A DNA stretch of 64,000 nucleotides. Source: Candidatus Scalindua rubra (GTDB taxonomy: Bacteria; Planctomycetota; Brocadiia; Brocadiales; Scalinduaceae). The notes beneath the pieces were generated by a model. That model ran no database searches. It saw only the letters and a program-made list of their open reading frames with translations, and had not been told where the DNA came from. Positions 55,624 through 63,803 of the stretch are shown here, piece after piece. The position numbers and the translations under genes are program-made. Where the stretch lies: positions 1 to 64,000 of the forward strand of contig MAYW01000002.1 of assembly GCA_001723765.1 (NCBI GenBank). Direction: 5' to 3'. The first letter of the stretch is position 1; each line of letters begins with the position of its first letter.

Positions 55624-56769
55624 TTACGCTAAGAGTTCTTCATAAACTCTCTCAACTTTTTCAGCCATAGATTCCAGAGAAAACCTGTTTTGTGCTTTTT
55701 TCAGTGATGCCTCAGTCAATTTCCTTCTCAGCTCATTATCTTTAGTTAACTTTATAATAGCCGTTGCTAAGTTTTCGGGTGTGTCGTCAATGACAAGTCC
55801 TGTGATATTATCATCAACCATTTCAGGTAACATTCCTCGATTAGCGGCAATAACAGGTTTTCCCATTGCCATGACTTCCCTGACTGCACGGCAGGAACCA
55901 TCTGTACCGGGAACCAGAAATATATTGAAATCCATACACGAAATGGCTTCTACATAGTCTTTAGTCCTATAACCAATATGGAGTATGACATCTTCTAATC
56001 CCATCGTCTTGGTTGGTTCTGTCAAAAGTTGTTTTTCTTTAGTCCCTCTACCTATGACAAGAAGTCTTAATCTTGAATCTTCTTGGGATGCTATTTTTAT
56101 TGCCTTTAAGAGTACGTCAAATCTCCGATGAGTTTGAATCCTTGCAATAATACCGGCCACAATGTCGTCTTTTTTCATTCCAAATTTATCCCTATAGGCA
56201 AGATTTTCATTTCCTGGATTGAAACGCTGGCAATCTATTGAAGCATCAATCATAATTACATTATCTTCGGATAATCCAAAATTTTTCATGTCTGCCATTT
56301 TTGCCTTTTCTGACACCATAATTAATTTATCAGTGAGTTTGGTCAAACAAATTTTGTTCCTTAGATCTTTCTTCAATGCAACTCCATCATGACTTGTACG
56401 TACGATGGGCAAAAACCTTCCCGTACGCCTGGCCGCAATCCCACCTACGAGGTGGTCTTGGTTGCGATGAACATGAACTATATCAAATGCCTCATTATTC
56501 ATAAAAACTGATAGTTTCTTAATGTCAGAGATTGCCTTAAAAAGCCTGAAGTGCTTGCTTAAATTAAAATTGGTAACAGGTACAAAACCACGTTCGTATG
56601 CACTCCTTTCTACCGATTCAGAGTCAGGCGGAAACGGATAGTCATCAATAGCCTTCCCACAGGCGATGGTGATATCGTGTCCACGCTTCTTTAATTCTGT
56701 ACAAAGGTTGAGCGCCGGTTCTGCTGGACCTGTCCATTTCCAATCACTATAGAGATGAAGTACTTTCAT
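55624..56769 (-). CDS. Glycosyltransferase family 4
   Basis: 381 residues, GT-B fold: an N-terminal domain with LHLYSDWKWTGPAEPALNLC and HVHRNQDHLVGGIAARR, then a C-terminal domain with GIIARIQTHRRFDVLLKAI and the donor-binding region GSCRAVREVMAMGKPVIAAN, in which the first Glu of the GT4 E-x7-E motif is present and the second falls in RGMLPE. It transfers a sugar to a lipid-linked acceptor. It is the last gene of the minus-strand arm of the glycan cluster, about 300 bases after the GT2 gene. Confidence 0.88.
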   Translation of the reverse strand: MKVLHLYSDWKWTGPAEPALNLCTELKKRGHDITIACGKAIDDYPFPPDSESVERSAYERGFVPVTNFNLSKHFRLFKAISDIKKLSVFMNNEAFDIVHVHRNQDHLVGGIAARRTGRFLPIVRTSHDGVALKKDLRNKICLTKLTDKLIMVSEKAKMADMKNFGLSEDNVIMIDASIDCQRFNPGNENLAYRDKFGMKKDDIVAGIIARIQTHRRFDVLLKAIKIASQEDSRLRLLVIGRGTKEKQLLTEPTKTMGLEDVILHIGYRTKDYVEAISCMDFNIFLVPGTDGSCRAVREVMAMGKPVIAANRGMLPEMVDDNITGLVIDDTPENLATAIIKLTKDNELRRKLTEASLKKAQNRFSLESMAEKVERVYEELLA

Positions 56770-56829
56770 TTTTTAATCACAGAGCTGCTTTTGAGCGCAA
56801 CCAAAGTAAAGAATGAAAATCCCGAATAT

Positions 56830-56941
56830 CGAAATCCGAAACAATACCAAAATTCGAATTCTCAAAATTCAAAACAGCTTGAATTTTAAGTAGAGTTTGG
56901 AGCATTAGAATTTATGTTATTCGAATTTGTTTCGCATTTCG
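56830..56941. repeat. CGAAATCCGAAAC inverted-repeat element
   Basis: CGAAATCCGAAAC (56830-56842) and GTTTCGCATTTCG (56929-56941) pair with one mismatch and bracket about 110 bases of AT-rich sequence. A dispersed-repeat type common in several bacterial phyla. The rest of the 56770-57074 gap shows no gene. Confidence 0.5.
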
Positions 56942-57074
56942 TGCTTCGTATTTCGAATTTATTTTCATTAGGTAGCACAAAAACATTGCTAAAAAGACAA
57001 CGTTTTATACATTTTGTAATATAGGGATACACAGTTAATATTGAAAAAGACAGAAATATAGAAAATTATGCAAA

Positions 57075-57860
57075 TTATTTTTCGTGTTTATTCGTGTCAA
57101 TTCGTGACTGATTCTTTGTACGTGATTCCCATAGTTTTGCATACTTCATGAAGACATAAAAAGATGTTGTTGTTGCAGCTATTAAACCCGGAACTCCATC
57201 CAGAAATCCACGTTTGAAGAAATATCCTTTGATAAATCTAAAAAGTGGTCTAAATATAAGTTGAAGAGTGATAGATTTTACACCTTTTTTATCCATTTCT
57301 ACAGCACTCATGTCTGTATATTTGTCAATAGTTTCAAGTTGGTGTGAAAGGTTTTTATATGTATAGTGAAAAACATCATTTTTTAAATATTTTGCCCTGC
57401 CGTTTAACTCGAGTGTTGCATGTGGTTCTTTCACCCACTTACCCTTGTTTTTTCTATATAGAAGGAGATCATACGCAGGATACCATTCTCCATAATTAAT
57501 CCATTTTCCAAGATAAAATGTTCTACGCGGAAAGTAAAAACCATCCCAATTTGAATTATCCTTAAGATATGATTGAATTTCTTCGTAAAGCTCAGGAGAA
57601 ATCCTTTCATCTACATCCATAAAGAGAATCCATTCATAATTGGCAAGGCTCACAATATAGTTAGACTGATCTTGAAAACCTGGCCATTTTCTTTGATAAA
57701 CTCTGTCTGTATATTTACGGCATATGTCAACCGTTTTATCAGTACTATATGAATCTACAACGATGATTTCATCAGCCCATTTAACATTCTCCATACAGTC
57801 CTGGATTAAGTCTTCATTATTAAAGGTCATTACACATGCGGAAACCCTGGCTTTGGCCAT
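57075..57860 (-). CDS. Glycosyltransferase family 2 (LPS-core type)
   Basis: 261 residues, GT-A fold: ARVSACVMTFNNEDLIQDCM, then DEIIVVDSYSTDKTVDIC and the metal-binding ILFMDVDERIS (D-x-D). After residue 85 the pattern FYFPRRTFYLGKWINYGEWY and HATLELNGRAKYL matches the KdtX/WaaE-like group that adds a sugar to an inner-core or lipid-linked acceptor. Near the C-terminus a hydrophobic helix (GLIAATTTSFYVFMKYAKLW) suggests membrane association. Part of the minus-strand glycan arm. Confidence 0.88.
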   Translation of the reverse strand: MAKARVSACVMTFNNEDLIQDCMENVKWADEIIVVDSYSTDKTVDICRKYTDRVYQRKWPGFQDQSNYIVSLANYEWILFMDVDERISPELYEEIQSYLKDNSNWDGFYFPRRTFYLGKWINYGEWYPAYDLLLYRKNKGKWVKEPHATLELNGRAKYLKNDVFHYTYKNLSHQLETIDKYTDMSAVEMDKKGVKSITLQLIFRPLFRFIKGYFFKRGFLDGVPGLIAATTTSFYVFMKYAKLWESRTKNQSRIDTNKHEK

Positions 57861-58057
57861 TATAATACTCCTTAAAGCTAATTTAATAATATAGGAATTC
57901 CCATTTTAAGTGCATGGACAGTTAGTAAAAATGATTACATGATCACCGGCAAGAATCCCATGGTGAGAGGAAGGCTAAAGCCTTCCGCTACATTTTATAC
58001 AACATAAAAAAGAAACTCCTATACAAAATATATTTAGCAGTATATTTAGGTTTGCGT

Positions 58058-59164
58058 CTACATTAAATTCTGAAATTCCGTGATTAAACTTGCAACAGCT
58101 TCGATTTCTTCTGTGGTTAATTCTGGATAAATAGGTAACGACAATATTTCTTCGGCATTTCTTTCACTTATCGGAAAGTCTCCTACTTGATATCCAAGTA
58201 TTTTATACGCTTTCTGCTGATGAATTGGGATTGGATAATGTATTTGTGTACCAATTCCATGTTTTTCAAGATAATCTTTTAAGGCATCTCTTTTATTTGC
58301 CCTTATTACAAAGAGGTGATAAACGTGTCTTGACCATTCTTTTTCACAAGGGAGTTGTATATTTGAACCTTCTAGTAATTGTTGGTATAGCATGGCTATA
58401 TCTCTGCGCTTGTTATTCCATTCATCTAAATACTTTAATTTAACTCGAAGGATAGCTGCCTGAAGCTCATCCAGCCGGGAATTAAACCCCTCAATCTTTG
58501 AAGTAAACTTTTTAACTTCGCCGTAATTTCTAAGCATAATTAGTTTCTTATATAGTTCTTCATTGTTTGTAACTATCATTCCACCATCGCCATATGCCCC
58601 TAGATTTTTCGTGGGATAAAAGCTAAAGCAGCCTAGATCACCAATAGTTCCTGTGTTTTTTCCTCTATACTTTGCACCATGGGCCTGACAAGCGTCTTCA
58701 ATGGTCTTTAGATTATATACTTTCGCTAATTTCGTTATTTGTTCCATCTCTGTAGGGTGACCATAAAGATGCACAGGTAAAATTGCCTTTGTTCTATTTG
58801 TAATTTTTTCTTCTATTTTTTTTACATTCATTGTGAAGGTATCTTGTGTAATATCTACAAGTATCGGTTTAGCTCCGGCAAAGGATATGGCAGAGATAGT
58901 TGGTACTGCTGTATTTGGAACTGTAATTACTTCATCTCCAGGTCCAATCTCACAGGCTTTTAAAGAAAGATGCAATGCTTCTGTACCTGAACCTACTCCA
59001 ACGGCAAATCTAACTCCAAAAAAATTTGCAAATTCCTCTTCAAACAATCTAACATTTTCACCTAGAATAAAAATCCCCTTTTTGAAAACCCTGAGAAATG
59101 CATTATCAAGTTCTTCCTTTAGACAATCATACTGTCTTTTAAGGTCAAAAAAGGGTATTTCCAT
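58058..59164 (-). CDS. DegT/DnrJ/EryC1-family aminotransferase
   Basis: 368 residues, PLP-dependent sugar aminotransferase. The PLP-binding Lys is in FSFYPTKNLGAYGDGG, preceded by EDACQAHGAKYRGKNTGTIG. N-terminal GSGTEALHLSLKAC and C-terminal QIHYPIPIHQQKAY complete the fold. It would aminate a nucleotide-linked keto sugar, supplying an amino-sugar for the glycan. It is followed by the GT2 gene and preceded by the epimerase in the minus-strand arm. All catalytic residues are visible, unlike in the 60851 gene. Confidence 0.92.
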   Translation of the reverse strand: MEIPFFDLKRQYDCLKEELDNAFLRVFKKGIFILGENVRLFEEEFANFFGVRFAVGVGSGTEALHLSLKACEIGPGDEVITVPNTAVPTISAISFAGAKPILVDITQDTFTMNVKKIEEKITNRTKAILPVHLYGHPTEMEQITKLAKVYNLKTIEDACQAHGAKYRGKNTGTIGDLGCFSFYPTKNLGAYGDGGMIVTNNEELYKKLIMLRNYGEVKKFTSKIEGFNSRLDELQAAILRVKLKYLDEWNNKRRDIAMLYQQLLEGSNIQLPCEKEWSRHVYHLFVIRANKRDALKDYLEKHGIGTQIHYPIPIHQQKAYKILGYQVGDFPISERNAEEILSLPIYPELTTEEIEAVASLITEFQNLM

Positions 59165-59315
59165 ATTGCTATACTATTAAATTAAATAGGACACAATTTT
59201 CGCAGATACATACAGATAGCTATTTTCCAGAGCTAAACCAAAGCTTAGCTTAGTCAGCTTTGTTATATTATCAAAAACCTTACGCTTAAAATCAGGTTTA
59301 GGTCCAAAATGGAAA

Positions 59316-60299
59316 TTACCAATAATGCTTTTTGTATTTCTCATAATAATCAAAGGTTGATCTTAGTCCTTCCTCTAAAGAAACCTTTGGTTGCCATCCA
59401 ACAGTTCTCTTAATCTTTTCATAATTTGCAACATAATTTCCTATTTCTATCTTTTTAAGGTCTTCCTTGAAAGGGACTAATTCATAATTACCATTATTAT
59501 ATACGCCTATCATTGTCTCTACCAAATCTATCAGGTTTTTTGGGATACCTCCAATGTTAAAAACTTCACCGTTGGCCTTTTCACTACAAGCTACCAGTAA
59601 TAATGCCTCAACAACATCATCAACATAGTTGATGTCTCTAATTTGTTTACCATCGCCGTATAACTTTATGGTCTGACCTTCTATTAATTGCCTTATAAAC
59701 CAGTTAATTATTCCTTGCTTGGGATGTTTCATCTGATGTCTGGGTCCATAAGTATTAGTTAATCTAAGCGAAACGGCTCTTATACCATAAATGTTGTTGT
59801 ATAAAATATGATAAGACTCTCCTGCAATATTATTTATCCCATTAACGTCGGTTGGATGCATTAAATGATTTTCATCTACGGGTAGATGGTCTGCTTTACC
59901 GTATTGCCCTCTGGTACCGGCAAAGACAATTTTGATATCTCTGTTATTTTTACGGCAGGATTCCAGGATTGACAACTGGCTCCTGCAGTTAATTTCTAGA
60001 TCAGTAAAAGGATCATTCATACTGTCTATGTGACTTAGTGTTCCTGCAAGATTAAAGATAATGTCCTTTCCTTTTACTAAATAGTCCATGCTATGTTTGT
60101 CTCTAACATCAGCGATGTTAACCTTTACCTTATCCTCTATACCATTAATGTTAAAATTATTCCCTCCATATTCTGGTATCAGGGAGTCGATAAGGTATAT
60201 GTCTGCTCCCATCTTTACAAGCCGATGAGCCAGAGTGCTTCCTATAAAACCCAGACCTCCAGTTATCAATATCTTCTTGTTTTTGAAATAATCTTCCAT
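59316..60299 (-). CDS. NAD-dependent sugar epimerase/dehydratase, YxxxK motif missing
   Basis: 327 residues, extended SDR fold. The nucleotide-binding motif is GGLGFIGS near residue 15-22, and LRLTNTYGPRHQMKHPKQGI and DINYVDDVVEALL are typical. At the catalytic site the expected Tyr-x3-Lys is replaced: the sequence is VNGINNIAGESYHILYN, so Asn stands where both Tyr and Lys should be. A related subfamily keeps Lys as NGINKxAGE. It may be a specialised or weak enzyme. First gene of the minus arm, with its start facing the divergent 60851 operon. Confidence 0.85.
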   Translation of the reverse strand: MEDYFKNKKILITGGLGFIGSTLAHRLVKMGADIYLIDSLIPEYGGNNFNINGIEDKVKVNIADVRDKHSMDYLVKGKDIIFNLAGTLSHIDSMNDPFTDLEINCRSQLSILESCRKNNRDIKIVFAGTRGQYGKADHLPVDENHLMHPTDVNGINNIAGESYHILYNNIYGIRAVSLRLTNTYGPRHQMKHPKQGIINWFIRQLIEGQTIKLYGDGKQIRDINYVDDVVEALLLVACSEKANGEVFNIGGIPKNLIDLVETMIGVYNNGNYELVPFKEDLKKIEIGNYVANYEKIKRTVGWQPKVSLEEGLRSTFDYYEKYKKHYW

Positions 60300-60850: not shown

Positions 60851-62107
60851 ATGAAGCTAAATTCAGGTACAATAAAGGAAGCTCCAGTCAAGAAAAGAAT
60901 TTCTGTGGGTGATTTCCAAATCAGCGTGGAAGAAAGGGCTGCCATTAATGAAGTCCTGGATGCTGGAAGAATTTCCGAATGGAAGAAAGTTCGAGAATTT
61001 GAAAGGCTTTTTGCTGATTATGTTAATACGAAACATTGCGTAGCCGTTAACTCTGGCACTTCTGCCCTGATAATAGGATTATCAGCATTAATAAATGAAT
61101 CTCGATTTCCAAAAGTTAGAAAAGGCAGTAAGGTAATAACAACACCTTTGACATATATTGCAACAATAAATGCTATTGTGTTGACAGGCTTAGAGCCTGT
61201 TTTTGTGGACATTAACCCTTATGACTTCTCAATACTGCCTCAAAAGATTGAAGAACATCTGGAAAGCGCAAATGATCCAAAAAAGTATTCCATTATCTTA
61301 CCCGTACATCTTATGGGTTATCCCTGTGATATGGATGAAATAAATAGAATTGCGGAAAAATATGATTTGGTTGTCCTTGAAGATTCTGCCCAGGCTCATG
61401 GTTCACTTTATAAGGGGGAAAAAACGGGGTCATTATCCTTCCTTTCTGTTTTTTCTTTTTATATAGCACATAATATACAGGCAGGAGAGATGGGGGCAGT
61501 AGCGACAGATGATGCCAATCTAATAAGTCTGATGAGAAAATTAAAGGCTAACGGTAGAATGTGTGACTGTTCTGTTTGTACAAGGCCAAATGGATATTGT
61601 CCTTACTTTCCCGGATACGAAGATGATGATCTTGATCCGCGTTTCGTCCATGATGTTATAGGTTACAATTTTAAAATAATGGAGTTCGAAGCAGCTCTGG
61701 GAGTAAGTCAATTGAAAAAAGCGGATTTTATACTTGAAAAAAGACAAAATAATGTACGTTTTCTTAATGAGCATTTAGATAAATATTCAGATGATTTGCA
61801 ATTGCCGGCATTTTCAAAGGACATAAGCTATCTGGCTTATCCAATTGTAATAAAGGAACATAGCAAATTTACCAGAAAGTATTTGCGGGAAGAACTGGAG
61901 AAAAATGGTGTTGAAAGCAGGCCTCTCTTTGGATGTGTCCCCACTCAACAGCCGGCATATAATTATCTTAAGGAAGAATATGAGGGGAAAATACCAAATG
62001 CAGAATATGCTGGTAAAAAAGCCTTTTATATTGGTTGCCATCAATACTTAGAACGAGAGGATTTAGATTATGCGGTAAAAGCATTTGATCAAATTCTCGC
62101 AAAATAA
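60851..62107 (+). CDS. RfbH-like sugar 3-dehydratase (DegT fold, His in place of PLP-Lys)
   Basis: 418 residues. The fold is DegT/DnrJ/EryC1, with VNSGTSALIIGLSAL and EDSAQAHGSLYKGEKTGS, but the PLP-binding Lys position in FSFYIAHNIQAGEMGAV is His207. The same change marks PMP-dependent CDP-4-keto-6-deoxyglucose 3-dehydrase (RfbH/E1) and GDP-analogue ColD. Like RfbH it also has a Cys-rich insert, GRMCDCSVCTRPNGYCPYFP, that can bind an iron-sulphur cluster. It would therefore remove the C-3 hydroxyl of a 4-keto-6-deoxy sugar to make a 3,6-dideoxyhexose. First gene of the plus-strand arm; annotation as an aminotransferase would be misleading. Confidence 0.8.
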   Translation: MKLNSGTIKEAPVKKRISVGDFQISVEERAAINEVLDAGRISEWKKVREFERLFADYVNTKHCVAVNSGTSALIIGLSALINESRFPKVRKGSKVITTPLTYIATINAIVLTGLEPVFVDINPYDFSILPQKIEEHLESANDPKKYSIILPVHLMGYPCDMDEINRIAEKYDLVVLEDSAQAHGSLYKGEKTGSLSFLSVFSFYIAHNIQAGEMGAVATDDANLISLMRKLKANGRMCDCSVCTRPNGYCPYFPGYEDDDLDPRFVHDVIGYNFKIMEFEAALGVSQLKKADFILEKRQNNVRFLNEHLDKYSDDLQLPAFSKDISYLAYPIVIKEHSKFTRKYLREELEKNGVESRPLFGCVPTQQPAYNYLKEEYEGKIPNAEYAGKKAFYIGCHQYLEREDLDYAVKAFDQILAK

Positions 62108-62132: not shown

Positions 62133-63107
62133 GTGAACTTCTGGGAAAATAAAAAAGTCTTAGTAGCTGGAGGAGCAGGTTTTGTAGGCTCTCATGTTGT
62201 AGAACTGTTGGTAGAAAAAGGGGCCAGAACTGTAGTTGTTGATAATCTTGAAAACGGGACTCTTGAAAATCTAACTCATGTCAGAGATGAAGTTGAGTAT
62301 ATTAAAGGTGACTTGCATAACTGTGATGTGTGCAAAAATGCGTCTAGAGGCATGGATGTTGTACTGAATGTCGCAGCAAAAGTTGGAGGAATAGATTTCA
62401 ACCAAAAACATCCGGGTACGATGTTTAGAGATAATGCTCTCATAAACACAAATATGTTGGAAGCAGCTAGATTAAATGATGTAGGAAGATTTTTGGTGGT
62501 GAGCAGTGCCTGTGTCTATCCTCGGTTTTGCAGAATTCCAACTCCGGAAACTGAAGGTTTTGAAGGGGTTCCCGAGCCTACAAATGATGGTTATGGCTGG
62601 TCTAAGAGAATGGCTGAGTTTCAGGCTGGCGCTTATGCTAGAGAGTTTGGGATGAAAATTGCGATCGCAAGACCATATAATACCTATGGGCCAAGAGACC
62701 ATTTCGACTCTGAGAAATCTCATGTCATTCCTGCTTTAATTAAAAGAGTATTCGATGGAGAGAACCCTCTGACTGTATGGGGAGATGGAGAACAGAGTAG
62801 GGCTTTCCTGTACGTAACTGACCTTGCCCGTGGATTGTTAGAATTAACTGAGAAATATGGAGAAGCAGATCCCATAAACCTTGGAACTGATGAAGAAATT
62901 AAGATTAAGGACTTAGTTTCCCTAATCCTTAATCTTTCTGGCTTTAATCATAAAGTATACTTCGACACATCCAAACCGTCCGGCCAGCCAAGAAGGAATT
63001 GTGATAATACTAAAGCTATGGCTAAAATTTGCTTTAGAGCCAAAGTAAAGTTGGAAGAGGGTTTGAAAAAGGCGATTGAATGGTACGTTGCAAACCAACA
63101 AAAATAG
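62133..63107 (+). CDS. NAD-dependent epimerase/dehydratase (GDP-fucose-synthase-like)
   Basis: 324 residues with a GTG start. Extended SDR: GGAGFVGSHVVELL near the N-terminus, VVSSACVYP, and catalytic YGWSKRMAEF with Tyr and Lys intact. The C-terminal half has RPYNTYGPRDHFD and GDGEQSRAFLYVTDLARGLL. Substrate class: a nucleotide-linked 6-deoxy or hexose sugar; GDP-fucose synthase and related epimerases are the nearest by pattern. It follows the RfbH-like gene by 25 bases and precedes the GT2 gene by 3, so it is in the same operon. Confidence 0.9.
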   Translation: MNFWENKKVLVAGGAGFVGSHVVELLVEKGARTVVVDNLENGTLENLTHVRDEVEYIKGDLHNCDVCKNASRGMDVVLNVAAKVGGIDFNQKHPGTMFRDNALINTNMLEAARLNDVGRFLVVSSACVYPRFCRIPTPETEGFEGVPEPTNDGYGWSKRMAEFQAGAYAREFGMKIAIARPYNTYGPRDHFDSEKSHVIPALIKRVFDGENPLTVWGDGEQSRAFLYVTDLARGLLELTEKYGEADPINLGTDEEIKIKDLVSLILNLSGFNHKVYFDTSKPSGQPRRNCDNTKAMAKICFRAKVKLEEGLKKAIEWYVANQQK

Positions 63108-63110
63108 AAG

Positions 63111-63803
63111 ATGAAATCCTCTCTCATCATATTAACGCTAAATGAGATAGAAGGTGTAAGGACTCTATATGATAGAATTCCCTTTGATGCTGTAGACGAA
63201 TGTTTTGTGGTAGATGGAGGCTCTATAGACGGTACTGTTGAGTTTTTTAGGGAAAGGGGAATTAAGGTTGTTCCCCAGGAAATTAAAGGGAGAGGAGAAG
63301 CCTTCCGAATAGCTGTAAAAGAGGCCAAAGGAAGCTATCTGATATTCTTCAGTCCTGATGGGAACGAAAACCCAGGCGACATACCTAAGCTTCTCGAATT
63401 GCTTGCAAGGGGATATGACATAGCAATTGCTTCCCGGTTTTTGTCGGGCTCGCAAAATGAAGAAGATGATTTACGTTTTCCATGGCGAGCTTGGGCAAAT
63501 AGAACTTTTACCTATATTGCTAACATTATCTGGAATACCAATAGGAATTATATTACAGATACTATTAATGGTTACCGAGCCGTTAAGAAAGGGGCATTTA
63601 ATAAATTAAATATTAATGCACCTGGTTTTGTAATTGAATATCAAATGTCCATAAGGGCAATGAAATTAGGTTTAAAGGTTGTTGAAATTCCTACTATTGA
63701 GGGTCAGAGAATTGGTGGTGTAAGTACCGCCAAATCAATCTCAACCGGCCTCCTGTTTCTGAGATTTCTTTTCAAGGAAATCAAGAATGGAAGGAAATTT
63801 TAA
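63111..63803 (+). CDS. Glycosyltransferase family 2 (DPM1-like)
   Basis: 230 residues, GT-A fold: LIILTLNEIEGVRTLYDRIP, then VVDGGSIDGTVEFF and RGEAFRIAVKEAKGSYLIFF, SPDGNENPGDIPKL, and ASRFLSGSQ. The D-x-D is replaced by PDG, as in many dolichol- or undecaprenyl-phosphate sugar transferases. It would attach a sugar to a polyprenyl phosphate or similar acceptor. The C-terminus is helical without multiple membrane spans. Encoded between the epimerase and the Zn-ribbon gene, with a one-base overlap with the latter. Confidence 0.88.
   Translation: MKSSLIILTLNEIEGVRTLYDRIPFDAVDECFVVDGGSIDGTVEFFRERGIKVVPQEIKGRGEAFRIAVKEAKGSYLIFFSPDGNENPGDIPKLLELLARGYDIAIASRFLSGSQNEEDDLRFPWRAWANRTFTYIANIIWNTNRNYITDTINGYRAVKKGAFNKLNINAPGFVIEYQMSIRAMKLGLKVVEIPTIEGQRIGGVSTAKSISTGLLFLRFLFKEIKNGRKF

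What the first reader, a model, noticed from the sequence alone, without database searches (positions are those of the whole stretch)
60851..62107. DegT-fold enzyme with His207 replacing the PLP lysine and a Cys-rich insert
FSFYIAHNIQAGEMGAV has His where aminotransferases have Lys, and the Cys-rich segment MCDCSVCTRPNGYC matches the [2Fe-2S] region of RfbH. This predicts PMP-dependent C-3 dehydration and a 3,6-dideoxyhexose in the organism's surface glycan.
Basis: partly seen in the sequence, partly recalled or inferred. Interest (0 to 1): 0.5.

Follow-up and report, generated by a model that had tools for sequence, protein, structure and literature searches.

The report
Third kind of sugar 3-deoxygenase
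A gene in a marine ammonium-oxidising bacterium appears to encode an enzyme that strips an oxygen from an activated sugar to make a rare surface sugar; it belongs to its own branch of a known enzyme group and carries its own pattern of possibly metal-binding cysteines.

Summary
ORF 60851-62107(+) is a 418-aa DegT-fold protein with His207 at the PLP-lysine position and a loop C238-x-C240-x2-C243-x6-C250. Both are conserved in relatives. The RfbH reading is only partly right. Three cysteines line up with E1/RfbH C251, C253 and C261. The fourth E1 ligand (C193, recalled) is alanine here, and a new cysteine (C243) sits inside the loop. RfbH's curated cut-off is missed (248 versus 423 bits). In trees built without the trait columns, the gene falls in a separate 35-member clade, outside the RfbH+ColD clade. 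The genome, almost certainly Ca. Scalindua rubra (anammox), has GDP-mannose 4,6-dehydratase; searches found no CDP-glucose 4,6-dehydratase and no E3-like reductase. Four of the other subclade relatives have GDP-mannose 4,6-dehydratase genes nearby. One cluster carries both a CDP/RfbH branch and this GDP branch. In one anammox-order genome a bona fide ColD occupies a cassette that elsewhere carries the sister enzyme. Best reading: a PMP-dependent GDP-4-keto-6-deoxyhexose 3-dehydratase of a third lineage, probably with an Fe-S cluster of altered ligation, making a GDP-3,6-dideoxyhexose such as colitose. Cluster, substrate and product are inferred, not measured.

The parts
60851..62107 (+). H-type DegT-fold protein, proposed GDP-4-keto-6-deoxyhexose 3-dehydratase (418 aa)
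61388..61390 (+). Ala180 codon, at the position of E1 Cys193 (ligand number recalled)
61469..61471 (+). His207 codon (CAT), at the position of the PLP-binding lysine / E1 His220
61562..61600 (+). Cys238-x-Cys240-x2-Cys243-x6-Cys250 loop, proposed Fe-S site
62133..63107 (+). SDR related to GDP-L-fucose synthase; keeps Ser125/Cys127, Tyr154-x3-Lys158 and His197 (numbered by hand); proposed epimerase/reductase acting after the dehydratase
   Evidence: roles of these residues in GDP-fucose synthase are recalled
63111..63803 (+). GT2 family glycosyltransferase, same strand, 3 bases after the SDR; possible user of the sugar
   Evidence: role inferred from position only
59316..60299 (-). SDR of the divergent glycan locus (context)
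58058..59164 (-). ordinary Lys-type DegT protein of the divergent locus (context, contrast to the His type)

Best explanation
The gene encodes a PMP-dependent nucleotide-sugar 3-dehydratase of a third lineage, next to RfbH/E1 and ColD. Inferred mechanism: the C-4 ketone of GDP-4-keto-6-deoxy-D-mannose (made by the gmd product encoded elsewhere in the genome) condenses with PMP. His207, which cannot form an internal aldimine, removes the C4' proton and the C-3 hydroxyl leaves. The resulting intermediate is reduced by electrons delivered through an Fe-S cluster held by C238/C240/C243/C250, probably from a general ferredoxin. Hydrolysis then gives GDP-4-keto-3,6-dideoxyhexose. The adjacent GDP-fucose-synthase-like SDR would epimerise and reduce it to a GDP-3,6-dideoxyhexose such as GDP-L-colitose, for a surface glycan. 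Shown here: predicted fold, His and Cys conservation, clade, gene neighbours. Inferred: the reaction, cofactor, cluster, substrate and product.
For: His207 in 35 of 35 clade members examined. All Lys types on one side of a branch, 100/99 support, 24 Lys rows against 55 His rows. AlphaFold model pLDDT 94.3, pTM 0.92, matching E1 (Z 49.5), ColD (48.8) and GDP-perosamine synthase (50.5). gmd over cut-off in the own genome and in the 3 gene-bearing family relatives; TIGR02622 in 0 of these 4. gmd near close relatives: phage contig L100 (gmd, this gene, GFS-like, contiguous), Dethiobacter L020, Victivallales L023, plus a gmd fragment upstream in L021. gmd lies in 3 of 4 named-genome subclade-A loci versus 5 of 59 Lys-type loci, Fisher p 0.005; the gmd profile was built partly from these loci. 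The Dethiobacter cluster holds RfbF-RfbG-RfbH and also ManC, gmd, GFS-like and this enzyme. In Brocadiales genome G088 a true ColD (438 bits to 2gms) sits among genes (SDR 82% to L205, B12 radical-SAM 71% to L201/L202) that elsewhere accompany the sister enzyme. Window SDR best PDB matches are GDP-fucose synthases and GDP-mannose 3,5-epimerases.
Against: gmd is not adjacent in the window, and it is also present in 4 of 4 family genomes that showed no match to this gene at 1e-80, so its presence is necessary but not diagnostic. The GFS-like SDR has no counterpart at E<=1e-40 in the 3 gene-bearing relatives, so the last step is not general. No cluster has been measured; the loop has model confidence of only about 70, and 7 of 35 clade members have His but no cysteines there. 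Subclade-A locus L099 shows no SDR-cluster gene in about 5 kb on one side, and L022 carries an HddC-like gene. Dethiobacter also has CDP-pathway genes close by. By structure alone GDP-perosamine synthase, an aminotransferase, matches as well as E1.
Confidence: 0.6

Rival explanations
1. ColD-like redox-free enzyme: PMP is regenerated with glutamate, the product forms by hydrolysis, and the cysteine loop is structural (for example zinc) or vestigial.
For: Same nucleotide context as ColD. ColD fills the sister enzyme's place in a conserved gene set. Seven of 35 clade members have His207 and no cysteines. No dedicated reductase seen.
Against: Four cysteines are strictly kept down to about 40% identity. 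C238, C240 and C250 coincide with three E1 positions.
Confidence: 0.2
2. True RfbH/E1 function: CDP-4-keto-6-deoxyglucose 3-dehydrase with an E3-type reductase.
For: Best NCBIfam and PDB matches by sequence are RfbH/E1. Three cysteines align.
Against: Below the RfbH cut-off. RfbH plus this family as one clade is rejected, p-AU 0.0013. No CDP-glucose 4,6-dehydratase in 4 gene-bearing genomes of the family. No E3 seen. A separate RfbH exists in the Dethiobacter cluster.
Confidence: 0.06
3. Same chemistry, but on GDP-4-keto-6-deoxy-heptose, giving a 3,6-dideoxyheptose.
For: Sister subclade B sits with HddA-like kinase (11 of 15 named-genome loci versus 0 of 59 Lys-type loci) and HddC-like guanylyltransferase (8 of 15 versus 1 of 59) (both below the NCBIfam cut-offs in the member scanned). 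3,6-dideoxyheptoses are known from C. jejuni HS:5 (PMC10440746, abstract and passages).
Against: HddA-like genes were found in 0 of 4 named-genome subclade-A loci, and none clustered in the stretches fetched around the four gene-bearing loci of the window's family.
Confidence: 0.1
4. Sugar 4-aminotransferase in which His replaces Lys without loss of transamination.
For: Overall fold matches GDP-perosamine synthase as well as E1. SpnQ is reported to transaminate when no reductase is present (PMC8987622, passages).
Against: His207 is invariant in the clade and the His types group apart from Lys types. The review reports no transaminase activity for E1 and ColD under such conditions, and only a non-catalytic one for E1 H220K (PMC8987622 passages).
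Confidence: 0.04

Closest known systems
E1 / RfbH (DdhC), CDP-4-keto-6-deoxyglucose 3-dehydrase, Yersinia; PDB 3bcx
   Same: DegT fold, His for Lys (His220), three aligned cysteines in the same loop, proposed PMP and Fe-S chemistry
   Different: C193 replaced by Ala180, extra C243, longer spacing, separate clade, GDP not CDP gene context, no E3 seen
ColD, GDP-4-keto-6-deoxymannose 3-dehydratase, E. coli; PDB 2gms
   Same: His for Lys (His188), GDP-mannose pathway context, partner related to GDP-fucose synthase/ColC (ColC kinship recalled)
   Different: ColD has no Cys loop and no cluster; the ColD-like rows are sister to RfbH, not to this family, and have Cys at the C193 position
SpnQ, TDP-sugar 3-dehydrase of spinosyn biosynthesis (from the review's passages only)
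   Same: His and a four-cysteine [2Fe-2S] motif; works with ferredoxin or flavodoxin pairs, as proposed here
C. jejuni HS:5 GDP-heptose C3-dehydratase (PMC10440746)
   Same: GDP-4-keto-6-deoxy sugar C-3 dehydration; heptose context like the sister subclade B
   Different: 62-67% identical to ColD-type enzymes, run with PLP and glutamate; a different lineage
GDP-perosamine synthase, Caulobacter; PDB 3bn1
   Same: Same fold, highest structural Z (50.5, tied with E1); acts on the proposed substrate (recalled)
   Different: Lys-type aminotransferase, no Cys loop

Membership tests
DegT/DnrJ/EryC1/StrS (PF01041) | Pfam gathering score 19.8 | tested here: met
   303 bits over residues 24-412
RfbH / E1 | NCBIfam NF011936 curated cut-off 423 bits | tested here: not met
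   247.7 bits; 13 of 199 phylum genomes do have a hit over it
RfbH / E1 | His at the PLP-lysine position | tested here: met
   His207 = E1 His220
RfbH / E1 | Four cysteine ligands C193-x57-C251-x-C253-x7-C261 (motif recalled) | tested here: not met
   C251, C253, C261 have counterparts; C193 is Ala180; 14 of 14 RfbH rows keep C193
RfbH / E1 | Falls in the RfbH clade | tested here: not met
   RfbH 14 rows 100/100, this family 35 rows 100/97, RfbH with ColD 100/100; RfbH+family rejected p-AU 0.0013
RfbH / E1 | CDP-glucose 4,6-dehydratase in the genome | tested here: not met
   TIGR02622 at E<=1e-60 in 0 of 4 gene-bearing genomes of the window's family; own genome 88% complete
RfbH / E1 | E3-type reductase partner | tested here: inconclusive
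   one domain search (PF00970) of an 88% complete genome: three proteins, none E3-like by eye; no domain scan of them was run
RfbH / E1 | Bound [2Fe-2S] cluster | not testable with these tools
   needs protein
ColD | Falls in the ColD clade | tested here: not met
   ColD-like 6 rows 100/94, sister to RfbH; one of the six checked against PDB ColD
ColD | No cysteine cluster motif | tested here: not met
   window has four cysteines; 0 of 6 ColD-like have the pattern
ColD | GDP-4-keto-6-deoxymannose supply (gmd) | tested here: met
   459 bits at G000:C48:5645-6589; not specific,
ColD | Glutamate-dependent turnover | not testable with these tools
   needs assay
SpnQ | Groups with SpnQ | not tested
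   no SpnQ sequence fetched
GDP-fucose synthase / ColC (window 62133-63107) | NCBIfam NF047922 cut-off 500 | tested here: not met
   223.7 bits; relative, not called a member

The most novel reading that the evidence does not exclude
A third, previously unnamed lineage of PMP-dependent sugar 3-dehydratases performs Fe-S-assisted C-3 deoxygenation of GDP sugars with a self-contained four-cysteine loop. The fourth ligand has moved from the E1 C193 site into the loop (C243). The same lineage also contains natural cysteine-free versions, so redox and redox-free deoxygenation can be compared inside one family.
Probability: 0.5. Interest if true: 0.62.

Novelty: new variant of a known kind. Interest (0 to 1): 0.5.

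Why it matters
A 2022 review (PMC8987622, passages read) names E1, ColD and SpnQ as the well characterised 3-dehydratases, with the Fe-S cluster absent in ColD. A clade with its own cysteine pattern, GDP context and cysteine-free members would show that cluster use changed more than once (4 changes on the tree). It would also give a clean comparison of the two mechanisms. And it predicts 3,6-dideoxy sugars in anammox Planctomycetes and on at least one pathway carried by a contig classed as viral; the rows listed showed no such report.

Tried and rejected
RfbH orthology was rejected (cut-off, tree, AU test, missing ligand). An E3-like reductase was sought and not seen. RfbH and this family as sister Fe-S groups excluding ColD: rejected under the model; one ancestral cluster with several losses remains possible. 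gmd co-occurrence as proof of substrate was rejected: gmd is in 8 of 8 family genomes examined, 4 of them without a match to the gene at 1e-80. A PDB search with phage-contig protein L118 gave no hit at 1e-40. Literature: the rows listed (20 of 64; 3 of 3; 1 of 1; 12 of 821; 3 of 3; 2 of 2) showed, by title and start of abstract, no paper on a Fe-S GDP-sugar 3-dehydratase or on colitose in anammox bacteria; only CC0/CC BY/CC BY-SA PubMed Central papers are held there, so this is weak evidence of novelty. The E1 and SpnQ papers themselves are not held; E1 ligand numbers are recalled, checked only by counting on the PDB sequence printed.

Rows dropped and biases: six duplicate rows (L187, L191, L190, L007, L194, L100) were left out before trees and counts. 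Of 143 Lys-type rows 34 were used in the quick tree and 24 in the careful tree, where 11 rows (10 Lys-type and L118) were left out as long or unsure. 66 of 68 prepared proteins went into alignment A2 (L076:15119-16291 and L053:7907-9046 were left out). The scans used the pattern ED[AS]A[EQ]AHG, which favours Ala at the C193 position, and kept only the best 80 (79 distinct loci) or 74 matches; that bias does not touch the window and the nine relatives, all Ala. The neighbour profiles were built from proteins of some of the same loci, and their thresholds were my choice.

Full report
What was claimed and what is there. The ORF at 60851-62107(+) encodes 418 residues and is a DegT/DnrJ/EryC1/StrS protein (303 bits). 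His207 (codon 61469-61471) and the segment MCDCSVCTRPNGYC (residues 237-250) are present as written. In the PDB alignment His207 falls on E1 His220, the residue that is Lys in the H220K chain 3bb8. Three relatives from separate assemblies at 83-86% identity, a protein of a contig classed as viral at 58% and six proteins at 39-41% all keep His207 and C238, C240, C243, C250. A sequencing error or chance is therefore excluded. In 392 genomes drawn from the phylum, 10 have a match at E<=1e-80, the own genome included.

How the cysteines compare with RfbH. In both the pairwise and the profile alignment, C238, C240 and C250 fall on E1 C251, C253 and C261. In many sister-subclade proteins the last cysteine even shares the C-x-KRF context of E1 (and the E1 sequence printed). 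The E1 ligand set is recalled as C193, C251, C253, C261. C193 is Cys in 14 of 14 RfbH rows and, notably, in 6 of 6 ColD-like rows, but Ala in 35 of 35 members of the window's family (the pattern-search bias is told under Tried and rejected). The family instead has C243 inside the loop. The pattern CxCx2Cx5-9C is in 28 of 35 members; the other 7 have His207 and no cysteine in the loop. None of 143 Lys-type proteins has two or more cysteines there. A move of the fourth ligand from C193 to C243 is the simplest reading, but it is inference; that ColD keeps a Cys at the C193 place without a cluster warns against reading too much into that residue.

Where it sits in the family tree. Trees were built with the His column, the loop and the C193 column left out. 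The quick tree (90 rows) and the careful tree (79 rows) agree. In the careful tree the 35-row family is one clade (100/97). RfbH (14 rows, 100/100) and ColD-like (6 rows, 100/94) together form another (100/100). The 24 Lys-type rows are on one side of a branch (100/99). Holding RfbH and the window's family together without ColD is rejected (p-AU 0.0013). The presence of cysteines needs 4 changes among 55 H-type rows; the tree cannot tell gain from loss. The ColD-like label is tested for one member: the G088 protein matches ColD 2gms over nearly its whole length with 438 bits. The NCBIfam RfbH model gives the window protein 247.7 bits against a cut-off of 423. Of 199 genomes of the phylum 13 have a hit over that cut-off, the own genome not.

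Structure. A model from 66 sequences has mean pLDDT 94.3 and pTM 0.92; the loop region 241-260 is near 70. VIA-align Z is 50.5 to GDP-perosamine synthase, 49.5 to E1 and 48.8 to ColD; E1 and the perosamine synthase are about tied, so the fold alone does not choose between aminotransferase and dehydratase. The His does, together with the tree.

Which organism. The genome has 5,194,263 bases in 443 contigs. The Ca. Scalindua rubra draft is reported as 5.19 Mbp in 443 contigs (PMC5486813, one passage). The genome holds a hydrazine synthase alpha domain (83 bits; 0 of 14 control genomes). The window is thus almost certainly from this anammox planctomycete.

Which sugar. GDP-mannose 4,6-dehydratase (TIGR01472, over cut-off) is present in the own genome and in the 3 gene-bearing family relatives. 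CDP-glucose 4,6-dehydratase is in 0 of these 4. By itself gmd is weak evidence, since it is also in 4 of 4 family genomes without a match to this gene. The neighbours of the ten subclade-A proteins say more. In contig L100 (IMG/VR) the order is gmd, this gene, GFS-like SDR, back to back. In L020 it is gmd, GFS-like, this gene. In L023 gmd lies 0.5 kb downstream. In L021 a gmd fragment begins the contig about 4 kb upstream. L099 shows no SDR-cluster gene in its one long flank, the L022 contig starts inside the gene, and in the four Scalindua-family genomes gmd is elsewhere. Against Lys-type loci the enrichment is 3 of 4 versus 5 of 59 (p 0.005, small numbers). The Dethiobacter contig is the clearest case: RfbF (433 bits), RfbG (493) and a true RfbH (757) stand in a row; on the same strand the cluster also has ManC (575) before them and, at its other end, gmd, GFS-like and this enzyme in a row. 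If the new enzyme did RfbH's job it would be redundant there.

The window's own partner. The next gene (62133-63107) is an SDR whose best solved relatives are GDP-fucose synthases and GDP-mannose 3,5-epimerases. It is below the GDP-fucose synthase cut-off (223.7 of 500) but keeps Cys127, Tyr154-x3-Lys158 and His197 in the aligned places (numbered by hand). It is the only NF047922 match at 1e-40 in the four gene-bearing genomes, so the relatives must finish the sugar differently. A GT2 gene follows (63111-63803).

The sister subclade as a functional test. Subclade B genes sit with HddA-like kinase (11 of 15 named-genome loci versus 0 of 59 Lys-type loci), HddC-like guanylyltransferase (8 of 15 versus 1 of 59), a B12 radical-SAM protein (9 of 15 versus 0 of 59) and an SDR (8 of 15 versus 0 of 59) (names, where the HddA and HddC models are not reached at their cut-offs). 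In the Brocadiales genome G088 relatives of that SDR (82% to L205), of the B12 radical-SAM protein (71% to L201 and L202), of the GFS-like gene (52% to L200) and of the split transketolase of L205 (45% and 40%) surround a ColD instead of the subclade-B enzyme. One enzyme taking the other's place in a shared gene set is good evidence that the family does C-3 dehydration of a GDP sugar. GDP-3,6-dideoxyheptoses made by a ColD-type enzyme are known in C. jejuni (PMC10440746, abstract and passages).

Electron supply. E1 uses E3; SpnQ uses ferredoxin or flavodoxin pairs (PMC8987622, passages). The own genome has three FAD_binding_6 proteins: one beside a dihydroorotate-dehydrogenase-like gene and two beside iron-sulfur subunits of Hdr/hydrogenase type, named by eye. 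None looks like E3, so a general ferredoxin, as with SpnQ, is the likely donor. The genome is 88% complete, so absence is not proof.

Verdict. The finding is a real and well-conserved enzyme. It is a new variant of a known kind, a third lineage of PMP-dependent 3-dehydratases, and worth a bench test because the clade contains both four-cysteine and cysteine-free forms.

Noticed in passing
L202, L205, L030, L036, L026 (subclade B loci); G088 L210/L211: Shared gene sets pair the 3-dehydratase with a B12 radical-SAM protein, often a distinct SDR, and in some loci a TPP enzyme (pyruvate-dehydrogenase E1 alpha/beta in L030, split transketolase in L205 and G088), which suggests a branched-chain dideoxy sugar.
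   Followed up: partly
G088 L211:286-1446 and published Kuenenia S-layer O-glycan: The unresolved 174.09-Da residue of the Kuenenia S-layer glycan (PMC5088730 passages) has the same formula, C8H14O4, as an O-methyl-3,6-dideoxyheptose or, worked out by hand, a yersiniose-type branched dideoxyhexose. G088 could not be shown to be that strain (no match).
   Followed up: partly
L100:3974-7105 (IMG/VR contig of 173 kb): A contig classed as viral carries gmd, the His-type dehydratase and a GFS-like SDR back to back, so a virus may make its own dideoxy sugar donor. Its viral nature was not checked here.
   Followed up: partly
window 55624-60299: A divergent glycan locus (SDR, Lys-type DegT, GT2, GT4) is conserved next to the His-type gene in G378 (L199) and in part in G390 (L197, where the contig ends).
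   Followed up: no
L020 + L213 (Dethiobacter contig): One cluster holds a CDP-dideoxyhexose branch with an acetolactate-synthase-like TPP enzyme as well as the GDP branch.
   Followed up: partly
L033, L035-L038: These five members (four titled Omnitrophota/Omnitrophica, L036 unnamed) form one clade, lack the whole cysteine loop but keep His207; L033, L035 and L036 keep the HddA-like, HddC-like, B12 radical-SAM and SDR neighbours: a natural cysteine-free version.
   Followed up: partly
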